A stretch of DNA of 10,216 nucleotides, taken from NCBI GenBank assembly GCA_028284565.1, contig JANQRM010000034.1, positions 1 to 10,216 on the forward strand, given 5' to 3'. Origin of the DNA: Anaerolineae bacterium (GTDB taxonomy: Bacteria; Chloroflexota; Anaerolineae; Aggregatilineales; Phototrophicaceae). Shown here in pieces: positions 602 through 8,579 of the stretch. Both the position numbers and the translations under genes were made by a program. Under the pieces are notes generated by a model. The model saw nothing but the letters and a program-made list of their open reading frames with translations, made no database searches and was not told the origin of the DNA. How positions within the stretch are numbered: position 1 is the stretch's first letter; each line of letters begins with the position of its first letter.

Positions 602-631
602 AGTATACGTTGCTTTTTGTGATTCTCTTAA
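602..631 (-). promoter_or_regulatory. Candidate promoter for the DUF4291 gene
   Basis: On the minus strand a TATACT -10 box (607-602) is preceded by 18 nt and a TTAAGA hexamer (631-626), which matches the TTGACA consensus at four of six positions. The -35 box overlaps the TAA stop of the SAM hydrolase gene. Predicted transcription would start near 595. The -10 is identical to those of the other promoters proposed in this window, but the -35 is mediocre, so co-transcription from the upstream gene is equally possible. Confidence 0.35.
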
Positions 632-1479
632 TCAGAGTCTTGAATAGTCATGATGACATCATCGCCAATCGCCACATTTAATTTATCCGAAGCATTCCCT
701 TGATTGACAGCGATTTCCAGCCAACCATTGCTATCGAGCTTCACAAACGCCTCACCCAGTTCAACCCTATGATACGACTCGCGTATCTGATTAAATTGTG
801 TATCACCAATAGTGATTTCAACGGATTCTGCATGTAGCTGTACCAATTGGCTAGGAATATGAAGCCGAGTATTCAGTGATAACGAATGGGAATCTTGCCA
901 AGTCAGATTGCCAATGCTGATTATGATATTTCCAAAATGGTCGATATAGACGACTTCGCCCTGAATAGTATTTCCTTGTTTCTCTAACTTTGGTACAGGA
1001 AGTGAGATTAAATCGTCCAGCCGTTCACCAAAATCTGCGAGATGGGTGTTGCCACGCGCTAAATACGCACATGCTGGCGCAAAAATATCACGTCCATGAA
1101 ATGAATGGCTCACATCGCTTAACTGATAGTCAGGATTATCCAGTGAAACAGCTTGGAATGACCCTAATTCAGACAAAACATAACTCAATACCCCATTATC
1201 CGGCGCAATGAAGGTGTAATCGTCGGCCTTAACTGCGATTGCCTTCCGTTGACTGCCTACGCCGGGGTCTACAACAACTAGAAAGTGTGTCCCCTTCGGA
1301 AAATAACTATAGCTATTCAATAATGTAAACGCCCCTTGTTGGAGATTCTGTGGTTCGGTGTGATGTGTAATGTCAATCAAGCGAGCCGACGGACAAATAT
1401 CTGCCATGACCCCTTTCATCACCCCAACATAACTATCTTGGATACCAAAGTCTGTGAGCAACGCGATCGTAACGGACAA
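628..1479 (-). CDS. SAM hydroxide adenosyltransferase (DUF62 / SAM hydrolase)
   Basis: The 283-residue product belongs to the DUF62 family, relatives of fluorinase and chlorinase that use water (hydroxide) to split S-adenosylmethionine into adenosine and methionine in the cytoplasm. Motifs seen: LLTDFG at 7-12 with Asp10, VVVDPGVGS at 68-76, IAPDNGVLS at 91-99 with Asn95, FHGRDIFAP at 127-135, and in the C-terminal domain YIDHFGNIIIS at 178-188, which contributes to adenine binding in relatives. Asp71, Arg78 and His128 correspond to the Asp-Arg-His triad typical of the hydrolysing members. Length is normal for the family. The start is TTG (1479-1477): AGGAAA (1490-1485) lies 5 nt before it, and an in-frame TAG at 1491-1489 rules out an upstream ATG, GTG or TTG. 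The gene diverges from the his operon. No clear promoter could be assigned to it. The exact physiological role of this family is still unclear. Confidence 0.93.
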   Translation of the reverse strand: MSVTIALLTDFGIQDSYVGVMKGVMADICPSARLIDITHHTEPQNLQQGAFTLLNSYSYFPKGTHFLVVVDPGVGSQRKAIAVKADDYTFIAPDNGVLSYVLSELGSFQAVSLDNPDYQLSDVSHSFHGRDIFAPACAYLARGNTHLADFGERLDDLISLPVPKLEKQGNTIQGEVVYIDHFGNIIISIGNLTWQDSHSLSLNTRLHIPSQLVQLHAESVEITIGDTQFNQIRESYHRVELGEAFVKLDSNGWLEIAVNQGNASDKLNVAIGDDVIMTIQDSD

Positions 1480-1507: not shown

Positions 1508-1537
1508 TTGACAAGTGTAACGCGACATGGGTATACT
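1508..1537 (+). promoter_or_regulatory. his operon promoter (sigma70-type)
   Basis: A perfect TTGACA -35 box (1508-1513) and a TATACT -10 box (1532-1537) are separated by 18 nt. Predicted transcription starts near 1544, about 25 nt before the leader peptide ATG and about 157 nt before hisH, so the transcript would carry the complete leader peptide and terminator. This is one of the two strongest promoter-like sequences in the window. Confidence 0.8.
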
Positions 1538-1568
1538 GGCATCGGTTGACTTTAGGAGATTTGTCCCA

Positions 1569-1622
1569 ATGTTCCATCATCATCATTCCACATTTAACCC
1601 AACACCGGTGTGTGCGACTTGA
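1569..1622 (+). CDS. hisL: Histidine operon leader peptide (four consecutive His)
   Basis: This is a 17-codon ORF encoding MFHHHHSTFNPTPVCAT, ending in TGA. It begins with ATG, 10 nt after an AGGAG Shine-Dalgarno (1554-1558). Residues 3-6 are four consecutive His codons, all CAT. It sits between a near-consensus promoter and an intrinsic terminator, 78 nt upstream of hisH. In enterobacterial hisL a run of His codons lets the leading ribosome sense charged tRNA-His: stalling there favours an antiterminator and lets RNA polymerase enter the operon. The arrangement seen here is the same, although the peptide sequence is not evidently related beyond the His run and is shorter in His number than the seven of the enteric leader. 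The peptide itself probably has no other function. Four adjacent His codons placed exactly here, before his genes, are unlikely to be chance; that the mechanism operates is inferred. Confidence 0.85.
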   Translation: MFHHHHSTFNPTPVCAT

Positions 1623-1652
1623 TGCTTTGCAATTCAACTTTGCGTAAACAAT

Positions 1653-1682
1653 AAGCCCCGCCGATAGCGGGGTTTTTTATTT
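1653..1682 (+). terminator. his attenuator: intrinsic terminator ahead of hisH
   Basis: A perfect 6-bp GC stem CCCCGC (1656-1661) / GCGGGG (1667-1672) with loop CGATA is followed by six T (1673-1678) and then ATTT. The A-rich bases before the stem can extend it against the T run. It ends 18 nt before the hisH ATG and 31 nt after the leader stop codon. No other gene on the plus strand ends upstream of it, so it can only act on the leader transcript, which is what is expected of an attenuator. Confidence 0.9.
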
Positions 1683-1700
1683 GTATGGGAAGGCAATTCT

Positions 1701-2321
1701 ATGTTAGCAGTCATTGATTATGGTGCAGGCAATTTACGCAGTGTGCTTCATGCCCTCAAGCATATTGGGGTCGAGGATATGCAATTGGTTCGCCATCCAC
1801 AAGAACTCGAAGGCGCAAGCAAAATCATCTTGCCCGGCGTGGGAGCATTTGGCGCAAGTATCCAGCAACTCCATAAGCAAGACCTCGTAAAACCATTACA
1901 AGATGCGATTACCGGCGGAATCCCCTATCTTGGTATTTGTGTGGGGATGCAACTCCTTTTTGAAATCGGCGAAGAAATGGGCGAACATGAAGGCTTAGGC
2001 ATCTTAGCGGGGCGCGTCGTGCGTTTTCCACAGGATGACAAGCTCAAAGTTCCACATATGGGTTGGAATCAATTGCATATCCAACGCGAGTCCTGCTTGC
2101 TAAAGAATCTTGATGCAGAAAGCTATGCCTATTTCGTCCATAGCTATTATTGTGCGCCAAGCAATGAAAGCGATGTGGTCGCAACCGTTGACTATGGACT
2201 TCCATTCACCGCTGTTATTCAACGAGATAATATCTACGGGGTACAATTCCATCCCGAAAAGAGCCAAACCTTTGGACTACAAATCTTAAAGAACTTTCTC
2301 GCACTCGCGGAGGCAGCATGA
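1701..2321 (+). CDS. hisH: Imidazole glycerol phosphate synthase, glutamine amidotransferase subunit HisH
   Basis: HisH hydrolyses glutamine and passes ammonia to HisF, which uses it to make imidazole glycerol phosphate and AICAR (fifth step of histidine synthesis). The 206-residue product is a class I glutamine amidotransferase: MLAVIDYGAGNL at the N-terminus, LPGVGAFG at 44-51 (oxyanion region), the nucleophile Cys80 in YLGICVGMQLLF, PHMGWNQL at 118-125, YFVHSYY at 144-150, and the rest of the triad, His184 and Glu186, in VQFHPEKSQ. Length is normal and the triad intact. GGGAAGG (1687-1693) lies 7 nt before the ATG. It is the first structural gene of the operon, directly after the attenuator terminator, and overlaps hisA by 4 nt (ATGA), which suggests translational coupling. 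Confidence 0.98.
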   Translation: MLAVIDYGAGNLRSVLHALKHIGVEDMQLVRHPQELEGASKIILPGVGAFGASIQQLHKQDLVKPLQDAITGGIPYLGICVGMQLLFEIGEEMGEHEGLGILAGRVVRFPQDDKLKVPHMGWNQLHIQRESCLLKNLDAESYAYFVHSYYCAPSNESDVVATVDYGLPFTAVIQRDNIYGVQFHPEKSQTFGLQILKNFLALAEAA

Positions 2322-3049
2322 TTATTTATCCAGCAATTGACCTACGAGGCGGAAAAGTCGTGCGTCTGCGAGAAGGTGATCCCAACCGACAAACGACCTT
2401 CAGTGATGATCCCATTGCCACTGCCCAACAATGGCTCGATGAAGGTGCGACATGGTTGCATATCGTCAACTTGGATGGTGCCTTCGCAGAAGCTAACAGC
2501 AATAGCCAAATCTTAGAAGCGATTGCACAACTTGATGTTAAAATCCAATTTGGAGGCGGACTACGCGATTTATCCGCAATTGAACAAGCCCTCAACAGTG
2601 GTGCAGACCGAGTGGTTATCGGGACTTTGGCAATTAAAGAACCAGAGATCGTCGGACAAACGGTAGAACATTTTGGAGCAGATGCCATTTGTGTCGCATT
2701 GGATGCGCGTGATGGCAAAATTACGACGCACGGCTGGCAAGAAGTCACCGAGCAAACGCCCCTTGAAATTGGTCAACATATGACAGAGGTGGGTGTTCAA
2801 CATGCCCTCTTTACCGATGTACAACGTGATGGCGGGTTAAGTGGTGTGAATATCGAAGCTACCGTCTACCTCGCACAAGAAACAGGCTTACAAGTTATTG
2901 CATCAGGAGGCATTAGCTCCTTAGATGACATCCGCGAATTAGCCGAAAGCGGTCACATAGCGGGTGTAGTCACGGGGATGGCACTTTACGAAAAGAAGTT
3001 CTCGCTCCAAGAAGCCATTGAGGTAGCCAATCAATTGAGTGTAGGGTGA
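2318..3049 (+). CDS. hisA: Phosphoribosylformimino-AICAR-phosphate isomerase HisA
   Basis: HisA carries out the Amadori rearrangement of ProFAR to PRFAR, the fourth step of histidine synthesis. The 243-residue product is a (beta/alpha)8 barrel of normal length. It begins with [15 protein letters not shown], in which Asp8 is the first catalytic acid; Asp129 in VALDARDGK is the second. Other family signatures are FGGGLRD at 78-84, the phosphate-binding [10 protein letters not shown] around 195-204 and VVTGMALY near the C-terminus. The half-barrel repeat with HisF is visible. GGAGG (2309-2313), inside the end of hisH, lies 4 nt before the ATG. HisA is the usual annotation; nothing suggests the bifunctional HisA/TrpF (PriA) of actinobacteria, but this cannot be excluded by eye. 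Confidence 0.97.
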
Positions 3050-3053
3050 TGCT

Positions 3054-3833
3054 ATGTTAGCCAAGCGAATTATTCCTTGTTTAGATGTGAAAGATGGACG
3101 TGTAGTCAAAGGTGTCAACTTCGTCAACTTGCGCGATGCAGGCGACCCCATAGAACAAGCGATTGTCTATGATCGTGAAGGCGCAGATGAATTGGTCTTT
3201 CTGGACATCACAGCCTCTCATGAAGGGCGAAAGACCACGCTCGATATGGTGCGTCATGTTGCTGATAGCATCTTCATCCCCTATTGTGTCGGCGGTGGTA
3301 TCCGCACCAAAGAAGACATTCGGGATACCCTGCTAGCTGGCGCAGATAAAGTCTCGATTAACAGCACGGCGATTCGCAATCCCCAATTGATTAATGATGG
3401 AGCATGGGCATTTGGCAGTCAATGTATTGTCGTTGCAATTGATCCCCTCTATGTCGACGGTAAGTGGGTCGTGCATATCAACGGCGGACGTGTCCCAACA
3501 GATAAAGAAGCAGTTGGATGGGCAAGAGAAGTCGAAGATCGTGGCGCGGGCGAAATCCTACTTACGAGCATGGACAGAGATGGCACGAAGGCAGGCTATA
3601 ATATCGAACTCACGCAAGCTGTTTCAGAAGCTGTCACAATTCCCGTCATTGCATCGGGAGGAGCAGGCAATAAAGCGCACTTTTATGAAGCATTCGCTGA
3701 TGGTAAAGCCGATGCCGCCCTCGCCGCGAGTTTATTCCACTATAATGAACTGCGGATTGGTGAACTCAAGCAATATCTCGATGAAAAAGACATCCCCATT
3801 CGCATGAACGGCTGGGAGGGACTCGATGATTAA
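3054..3833 (+). CDS. hisF: Imidazole glycerol phosphate synthase, cyclase subunit HisF
   Basis: HisF is the cyclase partner of HisH and converts PRFAR plus ammonia to imidazole glycerol phosphate and AICAR. The 259-residue barrel shows the N-terminal [19 protein letters not shown] with catalytic Asp11, CVGGGIRT at 78-85, the second acid Asp130 in [28 protein letters not shown] at 169-183 and VIASGGAGN at 198-206. Length is standard. It starts 4 nt after the hisA stop, with AGGGTG (3043-3048) as the ribosome binding site spanning that stop codon. Its 3' end overlaps hisI by 8 nt. Confidence 0.98.
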
Positions 3834-4179
3834 GAACTTGGAACTCAATGCCTTAAAATGGGGGAAAGATGGGCTGATTCCCGCGATTGTTCAAGATGTG
3901 AATACCAGTGAAGTTCTCATGATGGCATACATGAATCGCGAATCCCTCCAACAGACTCTCAACAAGGAGGAAACCGTCTTCTGGAGTCGCAGTCGGCGAG
4001 AAATCTGGCATAAAGGGGCGACATCCGGCAATATTCAAAAGGTGATTGAAATCCGTGTCGATTGCGATGCAGATACTCTACTCATCTGGGTTGAACCTGC
4101 GGGACCTGCGTGCCACACTGGAGAAGATACCTGTTTTTACCGTACCCTCAATGAATTTGCCGAAGAAAGCCTAACATAA
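3826..4179 (+). CDS. hisI: Phosphoribosyl-AMP cyclohydrolase HisI
   Basis: HisI opens the purine ring of phosphoribosyl-AMP (third step of histidine synthesis) and is a zinc enzyme that also needs magnesium. The 117-residue product has the single-domain length. Seen: [30 protein letters not shown] at 30-41, [18 protein letters not shown] at 52-69, metal-binding DCDADT at 79-84 (Asp79, Cys80, Asp81, Asp83) and [12 protein letters not shown] at 93-104 (Cys96, Cys103). All metal ligands expected in the family are present. The start ATG overlaps the end of hisF and follows GGGAGGG (3814-3820) by 5 nt. The hisE activity is on a separate polypeptide rather than fused at the C-terminus as in enterobacteria. 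Confidence 0.97.
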
Positions 4180-4481
4180 TGCCTGACATGCTCGACACCT
4201 TAGAAGCGATTATCCATGATCGCAAACGCAATCCAAAAGCAGGAAGCTATACTCAGCAACTCTTCCAAAAAGGACGTGGTAAAATCGCACAGAAAGTCGG
4301 GGAAGAAGCCACAGAAGTTATCGTCGCCGCCTTATCTCAAGAGAAATCTGACCAAATCAATGAACTAGCCGACTTGTTTTATCATGTCTTAGTCCTGATG
4401 GCAGACCTTGATATTCGTTTGGATGATGTGCGCGCTAATCTTGCAGAACGCCATCAACATCGCACCACAAAGGACAATTAA
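4179..4481 (+). CDS. hisE: Phosphoribosyl-ATP pyrophosphatase HisE
   Basis: HisE removes pyrophosphate from phosphoribosyl-ATP (second step of histidine synthesis). The 100-residue all-helical MazG-like protein shows LDTLEAIIHDRKRNPKAGSYT, the metal-binding helix KVGEEATEVIVAA (Glu42, Glu43, Glu46) and ELADLFYHVLVLM (Glu61, Asp64), which together form the acidic site of the superfamily. Length is typical for the stand-alone enzyme. The ATG shares one base with the hisI stop (TAATG) and there is only a weak GA-rich ribosome binding site, so translation probably depends on re-initiation after hisI. Confidence 0.96.
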   Translation: MPDMLDTLEAIIHDRKRNPKAGSYTQQLFQKGRGKIAQKVGEEATEVIVAALSQEKSDQINELADLFYHVLVLMADLDIRLDDVRANLAERHQHRTTKDN

Positions 4482-4483
4482 CT

Positions 4484-4900
4484 GTGCCACCATCAGACCG
4501 CTTTGTCTCAGAAACGACTTTTCATGTCCGTTATGCCGAAACTGACCAGATGGGAATCGTCCATCATGCAACTTACTTGGTTTATTTTGAAGAAGGACGT
4601 AGTGACTACATCCGTCAACGAGGTGGCAGCTATGCTGATTTCGAGAAGGTTGGCTACTTTCTCGCCGCAAGTGAAATCCATGCCCGTTTCATCAAGCCTG
4701 CCATTTATGACCAACAAATCACCGTTTATGCATGGATTGACGATATCAAAAGCCGACGCATGACTTTTGCCTGTGAAATCGTGGCAGTAGATACTCAAGA
4801 CCTGCTCTTCAAAGCGACAGCTAACCTCATCTGTCTCAATCGAGAGGGACAAGTTACGCGAATGCCAGACGAGTGGCACGCGTGGGGAAACCATGATTGA
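4484..4900 (+). CDS. YbgC/4-hydroxybenzoyl-CoA-thioesterase-like hotdog acyl-CoA thioesterase
   Basis: The 138-residue product is a single hotdog-fold domain of the 4-hydroxybenzoyl-CoA thioesterase / YbgC family, whose members hydrolyse acyl-CoA thioesters. The active-site signature is at residues 17-39: YAETDQMGIVHHATY followed by FEEGR, with Asp21 the expected catalytic acid; GGSYADFEKVGYFL and the strand-rich remainder fit the family. Substrate cannot be read from sequence. The start is GTG, 2 nt after the hisE stop, and AGGA within hisE lies 9 nt before it. The tight spacing puts it in the his operon, although its chemistry points to the acyl-CoA ligases that follow. A promoter for those ligases begins inside its stop codon. 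Confidence 0.88.
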   Translation: MPPSDRFVSETTFHVRYAETDQMGIVHHATYLVYFEEGRSDYIRQRGGSYADFEKVGYFLAASEIHARFIKPAIYDQQITVYAWIDDIKSRRMTFACEIVAVDTQDLLFKATANLICLNREGQVTRMPDEWHAWGNHD

Positions 4901-4925
4901 CCGTCCATAACGGATAAACTATACT
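4897..4925 (+). promoter_or_regulatory. Promoter of the acyl-CoA ligase genes
   Basis: TTGACC (4897-4902) and TATACT (4920-4925) are separated by an ideal 17 nt. The -35 box overlaps the TGA stop of the thioesterase gene. Transcription is expected near 4932, inside the palindrome described at 4931-4944 and about 40 nt before the ligase ATG. I see no terminator between the thioesterase and this promoter, so read-through from the his operon is also possible. Confidence 0.7.
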
Positions 4926-4930
4926 CAATT

Positions 4931-4944
4931 CATTCAATTGAATG
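4931..4944. promoter_or_regulatory. Perfect 14-bp palindrome, candidate operator
   Basis: CATTCAATTGAATG is a perfect inverted repeat beginning about 6 nt after the -10 box, covering the expected transcription start. A partly overlapping imperfect repeat follows (ATTGAAT at 4937-4943 against TTTCAAT at 4949-4955). The position fits a repressor site, for example for a fatty-acid-responsive regulator, but the protein is unknown and AT-rich palindromes of this length can occur by chance. Confidence 0.45.
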
Positions 4945-4972
4945 TTCATTTCAATAAATTTTGGAGACAAAT

Positions 4973-6709
4973 ATGGTTACTTATGCAGACCGTCCTTGGA
5001 CAAATAGTTATGATGATGGAATGCCCACTTCCCTTGAATTCCCTGAAGTACCGCTTCACCAATTTTTGCGCGATACAGCAAAACGTATCCCGAATAACAC
5101 CTGCCTCATTTCATCGGCACGCCTCCCTTTGCTGGGTCGCCAAGCCAATATGACCACCTATGCCCAACTAGACCGTGCCTCCGATGCAATGGCAGCTGGT
5201 TTGGTCGATACGGGGCTGAAAAAAGGTGATAGAGTAGCGATTGTGATGCCCAACTGTGCGCAATTTGCGATTACCTTCTTTGCCATTCTCAAAGCAGGCG
5301 GAGTTGTCGCGGCAACCAACCCGACGTATCCAGCTGATAAGATGGCATATCAAATCAACGACTGCGGAGCAGAATTCGTCGTTTGCCTGACACTCTTCTA
5401 CCCCTTAGTCAAGCAAATTCAATCGAAAACCCAAGTCAAAACAGTTATCGTCGCGAATATCAAAGAATATCTCTCGCCGATTGCCAAACTCCTCTTCACA
5501 CTCGCGCGTGAGAAAAAAGATGGACACTTCTTAGAGGCCCCGCAATCCGGTGATGTCTGGTTTCAAGATGTCTTGTCAAAATATGATGAGCAAAAACCCA
5601 ATGTCGATGTCAAGTCAGACGATCTTGCGCTTTTCCAATACACAGGCGGAACAACCGGTGTCTCCAAAGCGGCGATGGCACAGCACAAAGCTCTTGTTTC
5701 CAATATGCTCATGCTTGATTCGTCAATGAGTGTTTCGGGTGTTCCGGGAGAGAAAGAAATCTTCTTAGGCGCAATTCCCATGTTCCATGTTTATGGATTG
5801 GTCGTCGTCCTCAGTTTGGGTGTCTACAAAGGTGGGCAGATTGTCCTTGTACCGAATGCACGTGATATTGTCGATGTCTTAGATAATATCCATCATTTCA
5901 AAGCCACACTTTTTCCAGCTGTTCCAGCTCTCTATAATGCGATTAACAACCACCCCGATGTCAAATCGGGCAAATACTCCCTAAGCTCATTGAGAGACTG
6001 TATCAGTGGGTCTGCTCCCTTACCCCCTACCACCAAGAAGGAATTTGAACGCCTCAGCGGTGCAGTCGTACGTGAAGGTTTTGGCATGAGCGAAGCCCCT
6101 ACCGCCACCCACGTCAATCCCATCACGAAAGAGAATCGTGTAGGGTCAATTGGCTTGCCCTTGCCAGAGATGGATATGCGGATTGTCAGCCTTGATGATG
6201 GTGAAACGGATGTCCCTATTGGTGAAGTTGGCGAACTACTGATGTCGGGTCCCAATCTGATGGTCGGTTATCATGGGATGCCCACAGAGACCGCCAATTC
6301 CATTCGTGAAAAAGATGGCAAACGTTGGCTCTACACAGGTGACATCGCCCGCGTAGATGACGATGGCTACTTCTACATCGTTGATCGCAAGAAAGATATG
6401 GCACTCATTGGTGGCTTCAACGTCTACCCTACAGCGGTCGAGAACGCCCTCAAATCGCATGATGCCGTACTAGAGGTCGGTGTCGCCGCCATTCCCCATC
6501 CAGAAAAAGAAGGACAAGAAGCCCTAAAAGCATGGGTGGTGAAAAAGCCAGATCAAAATGTCACCGAACAGGAACTCATCGACTTCTGTGCAGATAAACT
6601 CGCCGCATACGAAGTGCCACGTCGCATCGCTTTCATAGATGAATTACCAAAAACTACGGTTGGCAAAACCCTACGTCGGGAATTGGTGCGCCTCGAAACC
6701 GAAAGTTAG
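4973..6709 (+). CDS. Long-chain fatty acid--CoA ligase (AMP-forming), copy 1
   Basis: The 578-residue product is an ANL-superfamily acyl-CoA synthetase that activates a fatty acid with ATP to an acyl-AMP and then to acyl-CoA. Motifs: the P-loop YTGGTTGVSK at 223-232, IPMFHVYG at 268-275, acyl-binding/A5 EGFGMSEA at 368-375, A7 YTGD at 454-457, hinge DRKKDM at 471-476, GGFNVYP at 480-486, and catalytic Lys565 in TTVGKTLRRE. The N-terminus (YADRPWT) and length match FadD/LcfA-type long-chain ligases. Chain-length preference cannot be read. I start it at ATG 4973, 6 nt after GGAG (4963-4966); a TTG at 4961 is in frame but lies on that ribosome binding site. The N-terminus then aligns with the next gene (MVTYADRPWT). 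It follows its own promoter and is closely paralogous to copy 2. Confidence 0.93.
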   Translation: MVTYADRPWTNSYDDGMPTSLEFPEVPLHQFLRDTAKRIPNNTCLISSARLPLLGRQANMTTYAQLDRASDAMAAGLVDTGLKKGDRVAIVMPNCAQFAITFFAILKAGGVVAATNPTYPADKMAYQINDCGAEFVVCLTLFYPLVKQIQSKTQVKTVIVANIKEYLSPIAKLLFTLAREKKDGHFLEAPQSGDVWFQDVLSKYDEQKPNVDVKSDDLALFQYTGGTTGVSKAAMAQHKALVSNMLMLDSSMSVSGVPGEKEIFLGAIPMFHVYGLVVVLSLGVYKGGQIVLVPNARDIVDVLDNIHHFKATLFPAVPALYNAINNHPDVKSGKYSLSSLRDCISGSAPLPPTTKKEFERLSGAVVREGFGMSEAPTATHVNPITKENRVGSIGLPLPEMDMRIVSLDDGETDVPIGEVGELLMSGPNLMVGYHGMPTETANSIREKDGKRWLYTGDIARVDDDGYFYIVDRKKDMALIGGFNVYPTAVENALKSHDAVLEVGVAAIPHPEKEGQEALKAWVVKKPDQNVTEQELIDFCADKLAAYEVPRRIAFIDELPKTTVGKTLRRELVRLETES

Positions 6710-6752
6710 CAGAAGAAGTCATTAAAACACGATACAATAAAGGAAAATTGAT

Positions 6753-6782
6753 ACCGAGTCTGAAACTGAGGCTCGGTTTTTC
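6753..6782 (+). terminator. Intrinsic terminator between the two ligase genes
   Basis: A 9-bp stem (6753-6761 with 6769-6777, one G-U pair) closes a 7-nt loop and runs into TTTTT (6777-6781). It ends only a few bases before the AAGGAG of the second ligase and about 16 nt before its ATG. It would separate the expression levels of the two genes, or could act as a conditional element in the leader of copy 2. Confidence 0.8.
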
Positions 6783-6797
6783 TTTAAGGAGATGTTG

Positions 6798-8579
6798 ATG
6801 GTAACCTACGCAGACCGCCCATGGACAAAACATTACGACCCCCATGTTCCCAAAACCCTTGAACCCTACCCTGATAAGGTGATGACGGATTATCTCCGAG
6901 AAACAGTTGCAAAAAATCCATCAGGCACAGCGTTAATTACAACACTCAAACTTCCACTATTAGGTCGACGAGACAGTCGCATCAGTTATGGTGAATTGGA
7001 CAAACTATCCGATGCGCTTGCAAGCGGACTGGTGGATATAGGATTGGAAAAGGGAGACCGGGTCGTCATTGTCATGCCCAATAGTGTTGCTTTTGCAGTG
7101 AGTTATTTCGCTATACTAAAAGCTGGAGGCTGCGTCGCGGCAACCAACCCCACCTATCCCCCCGGCAAAATGGCATATCAAATCAATGACTGTGGTGCGA
7201 AGTTTGTCATCACCCTCACACTGTTCTACAACCTCATCAAAGAGATACAACCTCAAACTCAAGTCAAACAAGTCATTGTTTCCAATATCAAAGAATACTT
7301 TCCAACGATTGGCAAAGTCCTCTTCACACTCGCTACCGAGAAAAAAGCAGGGCATCGCATCGAAGCATTAAAAAGTGGTGATGTCTGGTTCCAAGATATT
7401 CTCAAAAGAAATGTAGGACAAAAGCCCAATGTCAAAGTCGAACCCGACGATTTAGCTCTCTTTCAATACACGGGCGGGACAACCGGTGTCTCCAAAGGCG
7501 CAATCGCAACGCACCGCATTCTAGTTGCCACAACAGAAGGTGTCCAAGCATGGACAGGACTCAAAAGCGGAACATTTGGAGATATGAAACCCTCTGATAT
7601 GGTCTATTTAGGGGCAATTCCCATGTTCCATGCCTATGGGTTGGTCGCCCTCTTGACAAATGGAATCTCAGCAGGTGGCACAATCGCCCTCATCCCCAAT
7701 CCGCGCGATTTAAAAGAAGTCGTTGATGTCATTCATCATTATCAGCCCCATGTCTTTCTCGGTGTTCCTGCCCTCTATAACGCCATTAACAACCATGCCC
7801 GAGTCCAATCTGGCGAAGTCAGTCTCAAGAGCTTTGTATTGAGTACAAGTGGTTCCGCCCCTCTGCCCAATGCCACCCAAAAACAATACGAAACCCTCAG
7901 TGAGTGTTCAATTGTCGAGGGATACGGTATGAGTGAAACACCCGTTGCGACCCATTCCAATCCCATCTTTGGTGAAAAGCGGTTTGGCTCCATAGGCTTG
8001 CCCTATCCCGATATGGATTGCCGCATCTTGAGTTTGGACGATGGCGAAACCGAATTGCCTGTTGGGGAAGTGGGTGAACTCGTCATCGCAGGACCCAATA
8101 TCATGAAAGGGTATCATGGGATGCCCACTGAAACAGCCAATGCTTTGCGAGAAAAAGATGGGAAAACTTGGCTACACACTGGCGACATCGCCCACATGGA
8201 CGAGGATGGCTATTTCTACATCGTTGACCGCAAGAAGGATATGGCACTCATCGGCGGATTCAATGTCTACCCGGCTTCGGTAGAAAATGCGCTCAAATCT
8301 CATCCTGCGATTTTTGAGGTCGGTGTTGCCGCCATTCCCCATCCCGAAAAACATGGACAAGAGGCACTCAAAGCATGGATTGTGCTTCATCCCAATGAAA
8401 AAGTCACCGAAGATGACCTCATTAAACACTGCGAACATCATCTTGCAAAATATGAAGTCCCACGTCGCTTCAGCTTTGTCGATGAATTACCCAAATCAGC
8501 CGTCGGCAAAACCTTACGACGTGAATTGATTCGCTTGGAAATGGAAGAGCGCGAAAAAGAGGCTTTGCAAAACGCCTAG
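6798..8579 (+). CDS. Long-chain fatty acid--CoA ligase (AMP-forming), copy 2
   Basis: This 593-residue protein is a close paralogue of the preceding ligase and should catalyse the same ATP-dependent acyl-CoA formation. Motifs: P-loop YTGGTTGVSK at 224-233, IPMFHAYG at 274-281, EGYGMSET at 374-381, HTGD at 460-463, DRKKDM at 477-482, GGFNVYP at 486-492 and catalytic Lys571 in SAVGKTLRRE. Compared with copy 1 it has a longer, different stretch after the P-loop (about 238-270, including a TGLKSGTFGDMKPSD segment) and a charged C-terminal tail (MEEREKEALQNA); these may alter substrate range. The ATG at 6798 lies 6 nt after AAGGAG (6786-6791); an in-frame ATG at 6792 abuts the ribosome binding site and is less likely. 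An intrinsic terminator precedes the gene. Its stop codon overlaps that of the convergent membrane-protein gene. Confidence 0.93.
   Translation: MVTYADRPWTKHYDPHVPKTLEPYPDKVMTDYLRETVAKNPSGTALITTLKLPLLGRRDSRISYGELDKLSDALASGLVDIGLEKGDRVVIVMPNSVAFAVSYFAILKAGGCVAATNPTYPPGKMAYQINDCGAKFVITLTLFYNLIKEIQPQTQVKQVIVSNIKEYFPTIGKVLFTLATEKKAGHRIEALKSGDVWFQDILKRNVGQKPNVKVEPDDLALFQYTGGTTGVSKGAIATHRILVATTEGVQAWTGLKSGTFGDMKPSDMVYLGAIPMFHAYGLVALLTNGISAGGTIALIPNPRDLKEVVDVIHHYQPHVFLGVPALYNAINNHARVQSGEVSLKSFVLSTSGSAPLPNATQKQYETLSECSIVEGYGMSETPVATHSNPIFGEKRFGSIGLPYPDMDCRILSLDDGETELPVGEVGELVIAGPNIMKGYHGMPTETANALREKDGKTWLHTGDIAHMDEDGYFYIVDRKKDMALIGGFNVYPASVENALKSHPAIFEVGVAAIPHPEKHGQEALKAWIVLHPNEKVTEDDLIKHCEHHLAKYEVPRRFSFVDELPKSAVGKTLRRELIRLEMEEREKEALQNA

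What the first reader, a model, noticed from the sequence alone, without database searches (positions are those of the whole stretch)
1508..1700. Ribosome-mediated histidine attenuator upstream of hisHAFIE
In order, the sequence shows a TTGACA/TATACT promoter, AGGAG, a 17-codon ORF with His at positions 3-6, and a perfect GC terminator with six T, ending 18 nt before hisH. This is the layout of the enterobacterial hisL attenuator, but the leader sequence is different and the operon begins with hisH rather than hisG. Such leaders are well described in Proteobacteria. If the host is Chloroflexota, as the gene content hints, this would extend His-codon attenuation to a group where I know of no description. 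The ORF is too short for ordinary gene calling and would normally be missed.
Basis: partly seen in the sequence, partly recalled or inferred. Interest (0 to 1): 0.85.

Follow-up and report, generated by a model that had tools for sequence, protein, structure and literature searches.

The report
Chloroflexota histidine-sensing leader (attenuator)
Just before a set of histidine-making genes lies a tiny gene of repeated histidine codons followed by a stop signal for transcription, an arrangement known from E. coli that lets a cell make histidine only when it runs short, here found conserved across many Chloroflexota bacteria, where the papers I could search do not describe it.

Summary
Window 1508-1700 has a TTGACA-18-TATACT promoter, AGGAG, a 17-codon ORF (1569-1622, MFHHHHSTFNPTPVCAT) and an intrinsic terminator (1653-1678), ahead of hisHAFIE. 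HisH relatives are Chloroflexota. In the order holding the nearest relatives, 77 of 87 examined hisH loci with HisH at least 58% identical to the window have a His-rich short ORF plus terminator. The leader-ORF end is complementary to the terminator 5' arm, and own arms pair better than exchanged ones. Folding with the ribosome stalled at His favours an antiterminator; with the ribosome at the stop codon it does not. In the sister group, 15 of 15 hisG-first loci carry a His-rich ORF before hisG; some hisD and hisS genes do too. No Rfam family matches. Nine paper searches found no description in Chloroflexota. This is a known mechanism in a phylum new to it, probably of separate origin. Translation, termination and histidine response are untested.

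The parts
1508..1537 (+). promoter, TTGACA (1508-1513), 18-nt spacer, TATACT (1532-1537)
   Evidence: 11 of 12; in 72 of 78 leader-bearing loci (window included) the best upstream promoter scores 10-12 of 12, one shuffle per locus never above 9
1554..1558 (+). AGGAG, Shine-Dalgarno-like, 10 nt before the leader ATG
   Evidence: read from the sequence
1569..1622 (+). leader ORF, 17 codons, MFHHHHSTFNPTPVCAT, stop TGA 1620-1622
   Evidence: His-rich leader ORF plus terminator in 77 of 87 hisH loci at 58% HisH identity or more
1575..1586 (+). four consecutive His codons (CAT), the proposed sensor
   Evidence: 207 CAT and 70 CAC among His codons of 70 strict leaders including the window
1605..1616 (+). 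candidate antiterminator 5' arm (CCGGTGTGTGCG), inside the leader ORF
   Evidence: pairs with 1654-1664 at -10.7 kcal/mol
1653..1678 (+). intrinsic terminator: stem-loop 1653-1675 and T run 1673-1678; its 5' arm 1654-1664 is the antiterminator partner
   Evidence: folds at -15.0 kcal/mol on its own
1701..4481 (+). regulated genes hisH, hisA, hisF, hisI, hisE
   Evidence: same order in 26 of 29 relatives

Best explanation
A ribosome-mediated transcription attenuator that senses charged histidine tRNA for hisHAFIE. RNA polymerase starts near 1544 and a ribosome follows on the leader ORF. When charged His-tRNA is short the ribosome stalls on the CAT run (1575-1586); the end of the ORF (1605-1616) stays free and pairs with the terminator 5' arm (1654-1664), so the terminator cannot form and the operon is transcribed. 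When His-tRNA is plentiful the ribosome reaches the stop codon (1620-1622) and covers 1605-1616; the terminator forms and transcription stops before hisH. With no ribosome, a fold inside the leader ties up the arm in part, so termination is favoured. Shown: the elements, their conservation, the better pairing of own arms, the predicted switch. Inferred: translation, stalling, termination, response to histidine.
For: Elements in order. His-rich ORF plus terminator before hisH in 77 of 87 loci at 58% HisH identity or more, peptides otherwise variable. Promoters in the same place. CAT and CAC exchange freely, as expected of a translated run. Leader-end and terminator arms pair better within a locus than across loci: -14.4 against -11.6 kcal/mol in 83 loci; none of 2000 permutations reaches the observed mean within either of two sequence classes of 32 loci. 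Predicted upstream pairing of the terminator arm 0.73 (stalled) against 0.27 (at stop), shift over 0.2 in 67 of 78 loci, reverse in 0; shuffled exposed segment 0.50. His leaders also before hisG (15 of 15 hisG-first loci), hisD (2 of 30) and hisS (8 of 30) in the same order.
Against: No experiment. The window's own arm pairing is modest: -10.7 kcal/mol, and 53 of 77 foreign arms would pair better with it. With the whole hairpin made, the terminator is the minimum-energy fold in all four states of the window, so the switch must act during transcription. Part of the stalled/stop difference comes merely from more RNA being free (shuffled control 0.50). Relatedness inflates the permutation tests, and a single flank column next to the core shows 14 pairing and 11 non-pairing cells. 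10 of 87 near relatives lack the pair in the scan.
Confidence: 0.9

Rival explanations
1. Chance: a short frame with a CAT repeat beside an ordinary terminator.
For: Promoter-like and terminator-like sites as such are not in excess in the window.
Against: The upstream gene is divergent (628-1479, minus strand), so the terminator ends no upstream gene of its own strand. The arrangement recurs in dozens of species before his genes, with four hits elsewhere in 2.22 Mb.
Confidence: 0.01
2. The leader acts at the level of translation of hisH, or by coupling and reinitiation, rather than by transcription termination.
For: Leader peptides can act by reinitiation in bacteria (PMC4833913, title, abstract and passages).
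Against: A G+C stem followed by a T run is conserved between leader and hisH; 29 nt (median) lie between ORF end and hairpin and hisH starts beyond the T run.
Confidence: 0.05
3. Another RNA sensor such as a T-box, or a protein repressor, regulates the operon, and the His run is secondary.
For: T-boxes occur in Chloroflexi (PMC3766115, passages).
Against: No Rfam family, T-box included, reaches its threshold in the window or 16 relatives, nor is T-box among the weak matches of 1450-1720. The His run is the one feature of the peptide that is kept. A repressor was not tested.
Confidence: 0.04

Closest known systems
his operon attenuator of enterobacteria (hisL, Rfam RF00514)
   Same: Promoter, short ORF with a His run, terminator, alternative antiterminator, his biosynthesis operon downstream.
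   Different: No match to RF00514; peptide and RNA sequences unrelated as far as seen; operon opens with hisH; the antiterminator arm lies at the end of the leader ORF itself. Details of hisL are recalled.
Candidate His attenuators of Firmicutes (PMC9413887: passages and section 8 read)
   Same: Three to five His codons in a row in a short leader peptide, terminator and antiterminator, no RF00514 match; predicted by comparison, not by experiment.
   Different: Bacillus cereus group, Peptostreptococcaceae with Lutispora, and Erysipelotrichales; sequences not compared here.
His leader peptides before hisZ and a hisS paralogue in bacilli (PMC2965389: passages read)
   Same: His-run ORF before a hisS-type gene, like the hisS leaders seen here.
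   Different: Firmicutes; other genes and sequences.
Leader-peptide attenuators of Actinobacteria (PMC1262725: passages read)
   Same: Leader peptide, terminator and antiterminator outside Proteobacteria, also before tRNA synthetase genes (trpS, leuS).
   Different: Tryptophan, cysteine and branched-chain genes; that paper saw no conserved RNA structure upstream of histidine operons.

Membership tests
ribosome-mediated (leader-peptide) transcription attenuator | Short ORF upstream of the operon with a run of codons for the amino acid the operon makes | tested here: met
ribosome-mediated (leader-peptide) transcription attenuator | Intrinsic terminator between the leader ORF and the first structural gene | tested here: met
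   by sequence only, termination not measured
ribosome-mediated (leader-peptide) transcription attenuator | Antiterminator that excludes the terminator, with support from related sequences | tested here: met
   across relatives; in the window itself the pairing is modest (-10.7 kcal/mol), and the single flank column tested is mixed (14 of 25)
ribosome-mediated (leader-peptide) transcription attenuator | Leader is translated and read-through follows charged tRNA | not testable with these tools
   needs reporter and ribosome-profiling work; CAT/CAC exchange is indirect support for translation
Rfam His_leader RF00514 | Match to the covariance model at its gathering score | tested here: not met
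   no match in window or 16 relatives; not among weak matches of 1450-1720 either
T-box RF00230 | Match to the covariance model at its gathering score | tested here: not met

The most novel reading that the evidence does not exclude
This order of Chloroflexota has a histidine attenuation regulon that arose independently of the proteobacterial and Firmicutes ones. A His-codon leader stands before whichever gene opens a his transcription unit (hisH, hisG or hisD) and often before hisS. The design is pared down: the antiterminator arm lies inside the leader ORF, so the finishing ribosome masks it directly. Leaders for Trp, Leu or Ile/Val were not found at the genes tested.
Probability: 0.55. Interest if true: 0.6.

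Novelty: new member of a known kind. Interest (0 to 1): 0.5.

Why it matters
Leader-peptide attenuation is usually treated as a proteobacterial device with some Actinobacteria and Firmicutes cases. A well-conserved histidine system in another phylum suggests that the mechanism arises repeatedly or is older than thought. It implies that in these Chloroflexota transcription and translation are coupled closely enough for a following ribosome to control the polymerase, which can be tested directly. It also gives a set of short genes and terminators that ordinary annotation would miss, and a regulon readable from DNA alone in bacteria known mostly from metagenomes.

Tried and rejected
Rfam gave no family; weak sub-threshold matches to Phe_, Trp_, Leu_ and Thr_leader are taken as likeness of shape. 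Leaders for other amino acids: a Trp scan of 30 loci from the trpE search gave three hits (L283, L299, L305), none ahead of a trpE start; a stricter scan gave none in 30 ilvB-search, 30 leuA-search and 24 trpE-search loci. These searches hold paralogues too (23, 24 and 23 genomes over the family cut-offs), and the scan was not validated for those amino acids. Among 20 further regions (hisZ and hisS) no leader stood before hisZ; one weak relaxed hit in L341 precedes an 84-residue frame, and one in L349 was not counted. A single flank column beside the GGTG/CACC core (25 loci) has 14 pairing and 11 non-pairing cells and does not help the case. A first attempt to place hisG starts in 30 phylum loci placed 9 and was replaced by a fixed stretch. 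In one search, hits in L030-L080 that look like the hisB C-terminus and hits near -250 to -370 that look like the antisense of the SAM_HAT gene were set aside; both labels are my reading.

Rows dropped before counts: 217 loci collapsed to 189. In one search, 15 of 98 loci at 56% identity or more were skipped for lack of a leader or a terminator. In one search, 128 of 141 genomes with a match were examined; six more were not fetched and seven have only weak or partial matches. Searches use only the 78 loci already classed as leader-bearing at 58% or more, window included.

Full report
What is there. hisH starts at 1701, followed by hisA, hisF, hisI and hisE (Pfam gives the enzyme families, the names hisA and hisF follow from order and family). 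The upstream gene is divergent (SAM hydroxide adenosyltransferase, 628-1479, minus strand). By simple scans, promoter- and terminator-like sites are not in excess in the window (17 found against a mean of 16.1; 10 against 9.9). The case therefore rests on the combination and on comparison.

Host. No genome is held for the window. A search of the genome collection with HisH kept the best 80 of 588 relatives; the first 29 (62-74% identity) are by record title Chloroflexota or its subgroups, except one MAG titled Pleurocapsa. In a tree of 129 HisH rows the window lies inside a clade of 85 rows, of which 77 carry the leader; the fork that joins it to 34 others has support 100/92. NCBI places Aggregatilineales, named in two of the titles, in Anaerolineae, Chloroflexota. 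In 26 of the 29 loci hisH-A-F-I-E are found in that order; in L027, L028 and L029 the stretch held does not show all five.

Conservation. The order of genome G001 (locus L001) holds 154 searched genomes, 141 with a match to HisH. I examined 128 loci from 128 of these genomes. His-rich ORF plus terminator, strict (three His in six residues) + relaxed (two in four), by HisH identity to the window: 66% and more, 45 + 4 of 53; 61-66%, 22 + 2 of 29; 58-61%, 2 + 2 of 5; 56-58%, 2 + 1 of 10; 50-56%, 0 of 31. So 77 of 87 at 58% or more. One of these, L090, has an unusual 66-nt gap and almost no arm pairing. Of the ten without, L138 is masked; L145 and L176 show a His ORF and an imperfect terminator by eye; L113, L124 and L148 keep a terminator without a clear His run; L152, L165, L028 and L094 were classed as none (sequences printed). 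On the tree the label needs at least 8 changes, against a mean of 39 for shuffled labels: inherited, with some gains or losses. The peptides vary in nearly everything but the His run. In 70 strict leaders (window included) the His codons are 207 CAT and 70 CAC, and 72 of 78 leader-bearing loci have an upstream promoter scoring 10-12 of 12, while one shuffle per locus never exceeds 9. Exchange of CAT and CAC fits selection on the amino acid, hence translation.

Chance. A scan of all loci then held, both strands, 2.22 Mb, for a His-cluster ORF followed within 5-75 nt by a terminator gave 117 hits. The hits that were not printed have a downstream frame beginning like HisH; of those printed, four (L032, L041, L099, L256) do not stand before a his gene. 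Many loci are near relatives or copies, so 117 is no count of independent events.

Antiterminator. The end of the leader ORF is complementary to the 5' arm and loop of the terminator, in several sequence classes: GGTGTTGG with CCGCACC, GAGCGATGC with GCCTCGCTC, CAGGAGCG with CGCTCCTT. Over 83 loci own arms pair at -14.4 kcal/mol on average, against -11.6 when terminators are exchanged (50 permutations, lowest -12.1). In each of two classes of 32 loci none of 2000 permutations reaches the observed mean (-16.7 against -15.0; -16.5 against -15.3). Relatedness inflates such tests. The single flank column beside the core is mixed, 14 pairing and 11 not. The window's own duplex is modest: -10.7, and 53 of 77 foreign arms would pair better with its leader.

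Ribosome states. With 14 nt masked from the A site on, folding the nascent RNA up to the terminator loop gives a mean probability of 0.73 that the terminator 5' arm pairs upstream when the ribosome stands on the first His codon, 0.74 on the last, 0.27 at the stop codon, and 0.57 with no ribosome (78 loci). For the window: 0.73, 0.73, 0.27, 0.37. The stalled value exceeds the stop value by more than 0.2 in 67 of 78; the reverse occurs in none. Part of this follows from more RNA being free: shuffling the exposed segment gives 0.50 instead of 0.73 (69 of 78 loci above their shuffled mean; window 0.33, 0 of 20 shuffles as high). With the whole hairpin made, the terminator is the minimum-energy fold in all four states of the window, so the switch must work during transcription. 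Without a ribosome the window's His codons pair with the stop-codon region, a possible protector hairpin.

A regulon. In a sample of 41 genomes of the order I scanned 30 of the hisD and 30 of the hisS loci. In the 15 hisD loci in which hisG could be placed, 15 have a His-cluster ORF before hisG; 10 of them pass the terminator scan, and by eye the other five have a hairpin with a short T run. In 350-nt stretches of 30 phylum loci the same ORF criterion is met in 3 of 592. For 14 of these 15 genomes the hisH locus was examined and has no leader. Two hisD loci (L239, L240) have a leader before hisD, and 8 of 30 hisS loci have one before hisS; two of 20 further regions (L346, L347) show it before hisS-like genes. 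Four of the eight hisS genomes (G001, G028, G090, G170) also have the hisH leader. Of 23 such leaders folded, most but not all show higher upstream pairing when stalled; L223, L248 and L332 show the reverse and L255 no change. So the leader tends to stand before the first gene of a histidine unit. In the phylum sample of 121 genomes, 93 have hisG; of the 30 loci given, one (L332) has a His leader with a terminator; a second ORF-only hit (L312) has no terminator in the scan. No such leader was found for Trp, Leu or Ile/Val.

Known systems. The layout is that of the his attenuator of enterobacteria, but no Rfam family matches. PMC9413887 describes candidate His attenuators in three Firmicutes lineages and found no RF00514 match there (passages and section 8). 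PMC2965389 reports His leaders before hisZ and a hisS paralogue in bacilli (passages). PMC1262725 predicts attenuators in Actinobacteria but saw no conserved RNA structure upstream of histidine operons (passages); [quoted passage not shown]). [quoted passage not shown]). PMC4833913 itself mentions Chloroflexi as a group with relatively few genomes (passages). Nine searches found no description of a His leader in Chloroflexota. They cover open-licence papers only; I recall, unchecked, attenuator surveys in subscription journals that may have included this phylum.

Verdict. The finding is real and its reading is right as far as sequence can show. Its separate origin is inferred from the lack of any sequence-family match, not shown by a tree.

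Noticed in passing
L217, L220-L228, L230-L232, L234, L235 (upstream of hisG); L239, L240 (hisD); L248, L249, L251, L254, L255, L259, L261, L262, L346, L347 (hisS): His-rich short ORFs, most with a downstream terminator, before other histidine genes of the same order.
   Followed up: partly
L332, 1257-1410: Possible His leader (NHHHHEQG at the end of the ORF) with a long perfect hairpin and T run before hisG, from the phylum sample; predicted switch not seen in folding.
   Followed up: partly
L021: Record titled Pleurocapsa minor (a cyanobacterial name) whose his operon groups with the Chloroflexota loci: probably a mislabelled MAG or bin.
   Followed up: no
window 628-1479: Divergent SAM hydroxide adenosyltransferase gene; its N-terminal start lies 28 nt from the -35 hexamer. 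A relative stands on the minus strand upstream of hisH in 13 of 29 loci.
   Followed up: partly
window 4484-4900: Thioesterase-like gene directly after hisE; found near hisE in 4 of 29 relatives.
   Followed up: partly
window 4897-8579: Two similar AMP-binding (acyl-CoA ligase-like) genes in tandem, with a promoter-like site TTGACC-17-TATACT at 4897-4925 before the first and a terminator-like hairpin at 6753-6777 between them (Pfam run on the first only).
   Followed up: no
window 1550-1682: Sub-threshold matches to Phe_, Trp_, Leu_ and Thr_leader but not His_leader; likely a shared shape of ORF then terminator.
   Followed up: no
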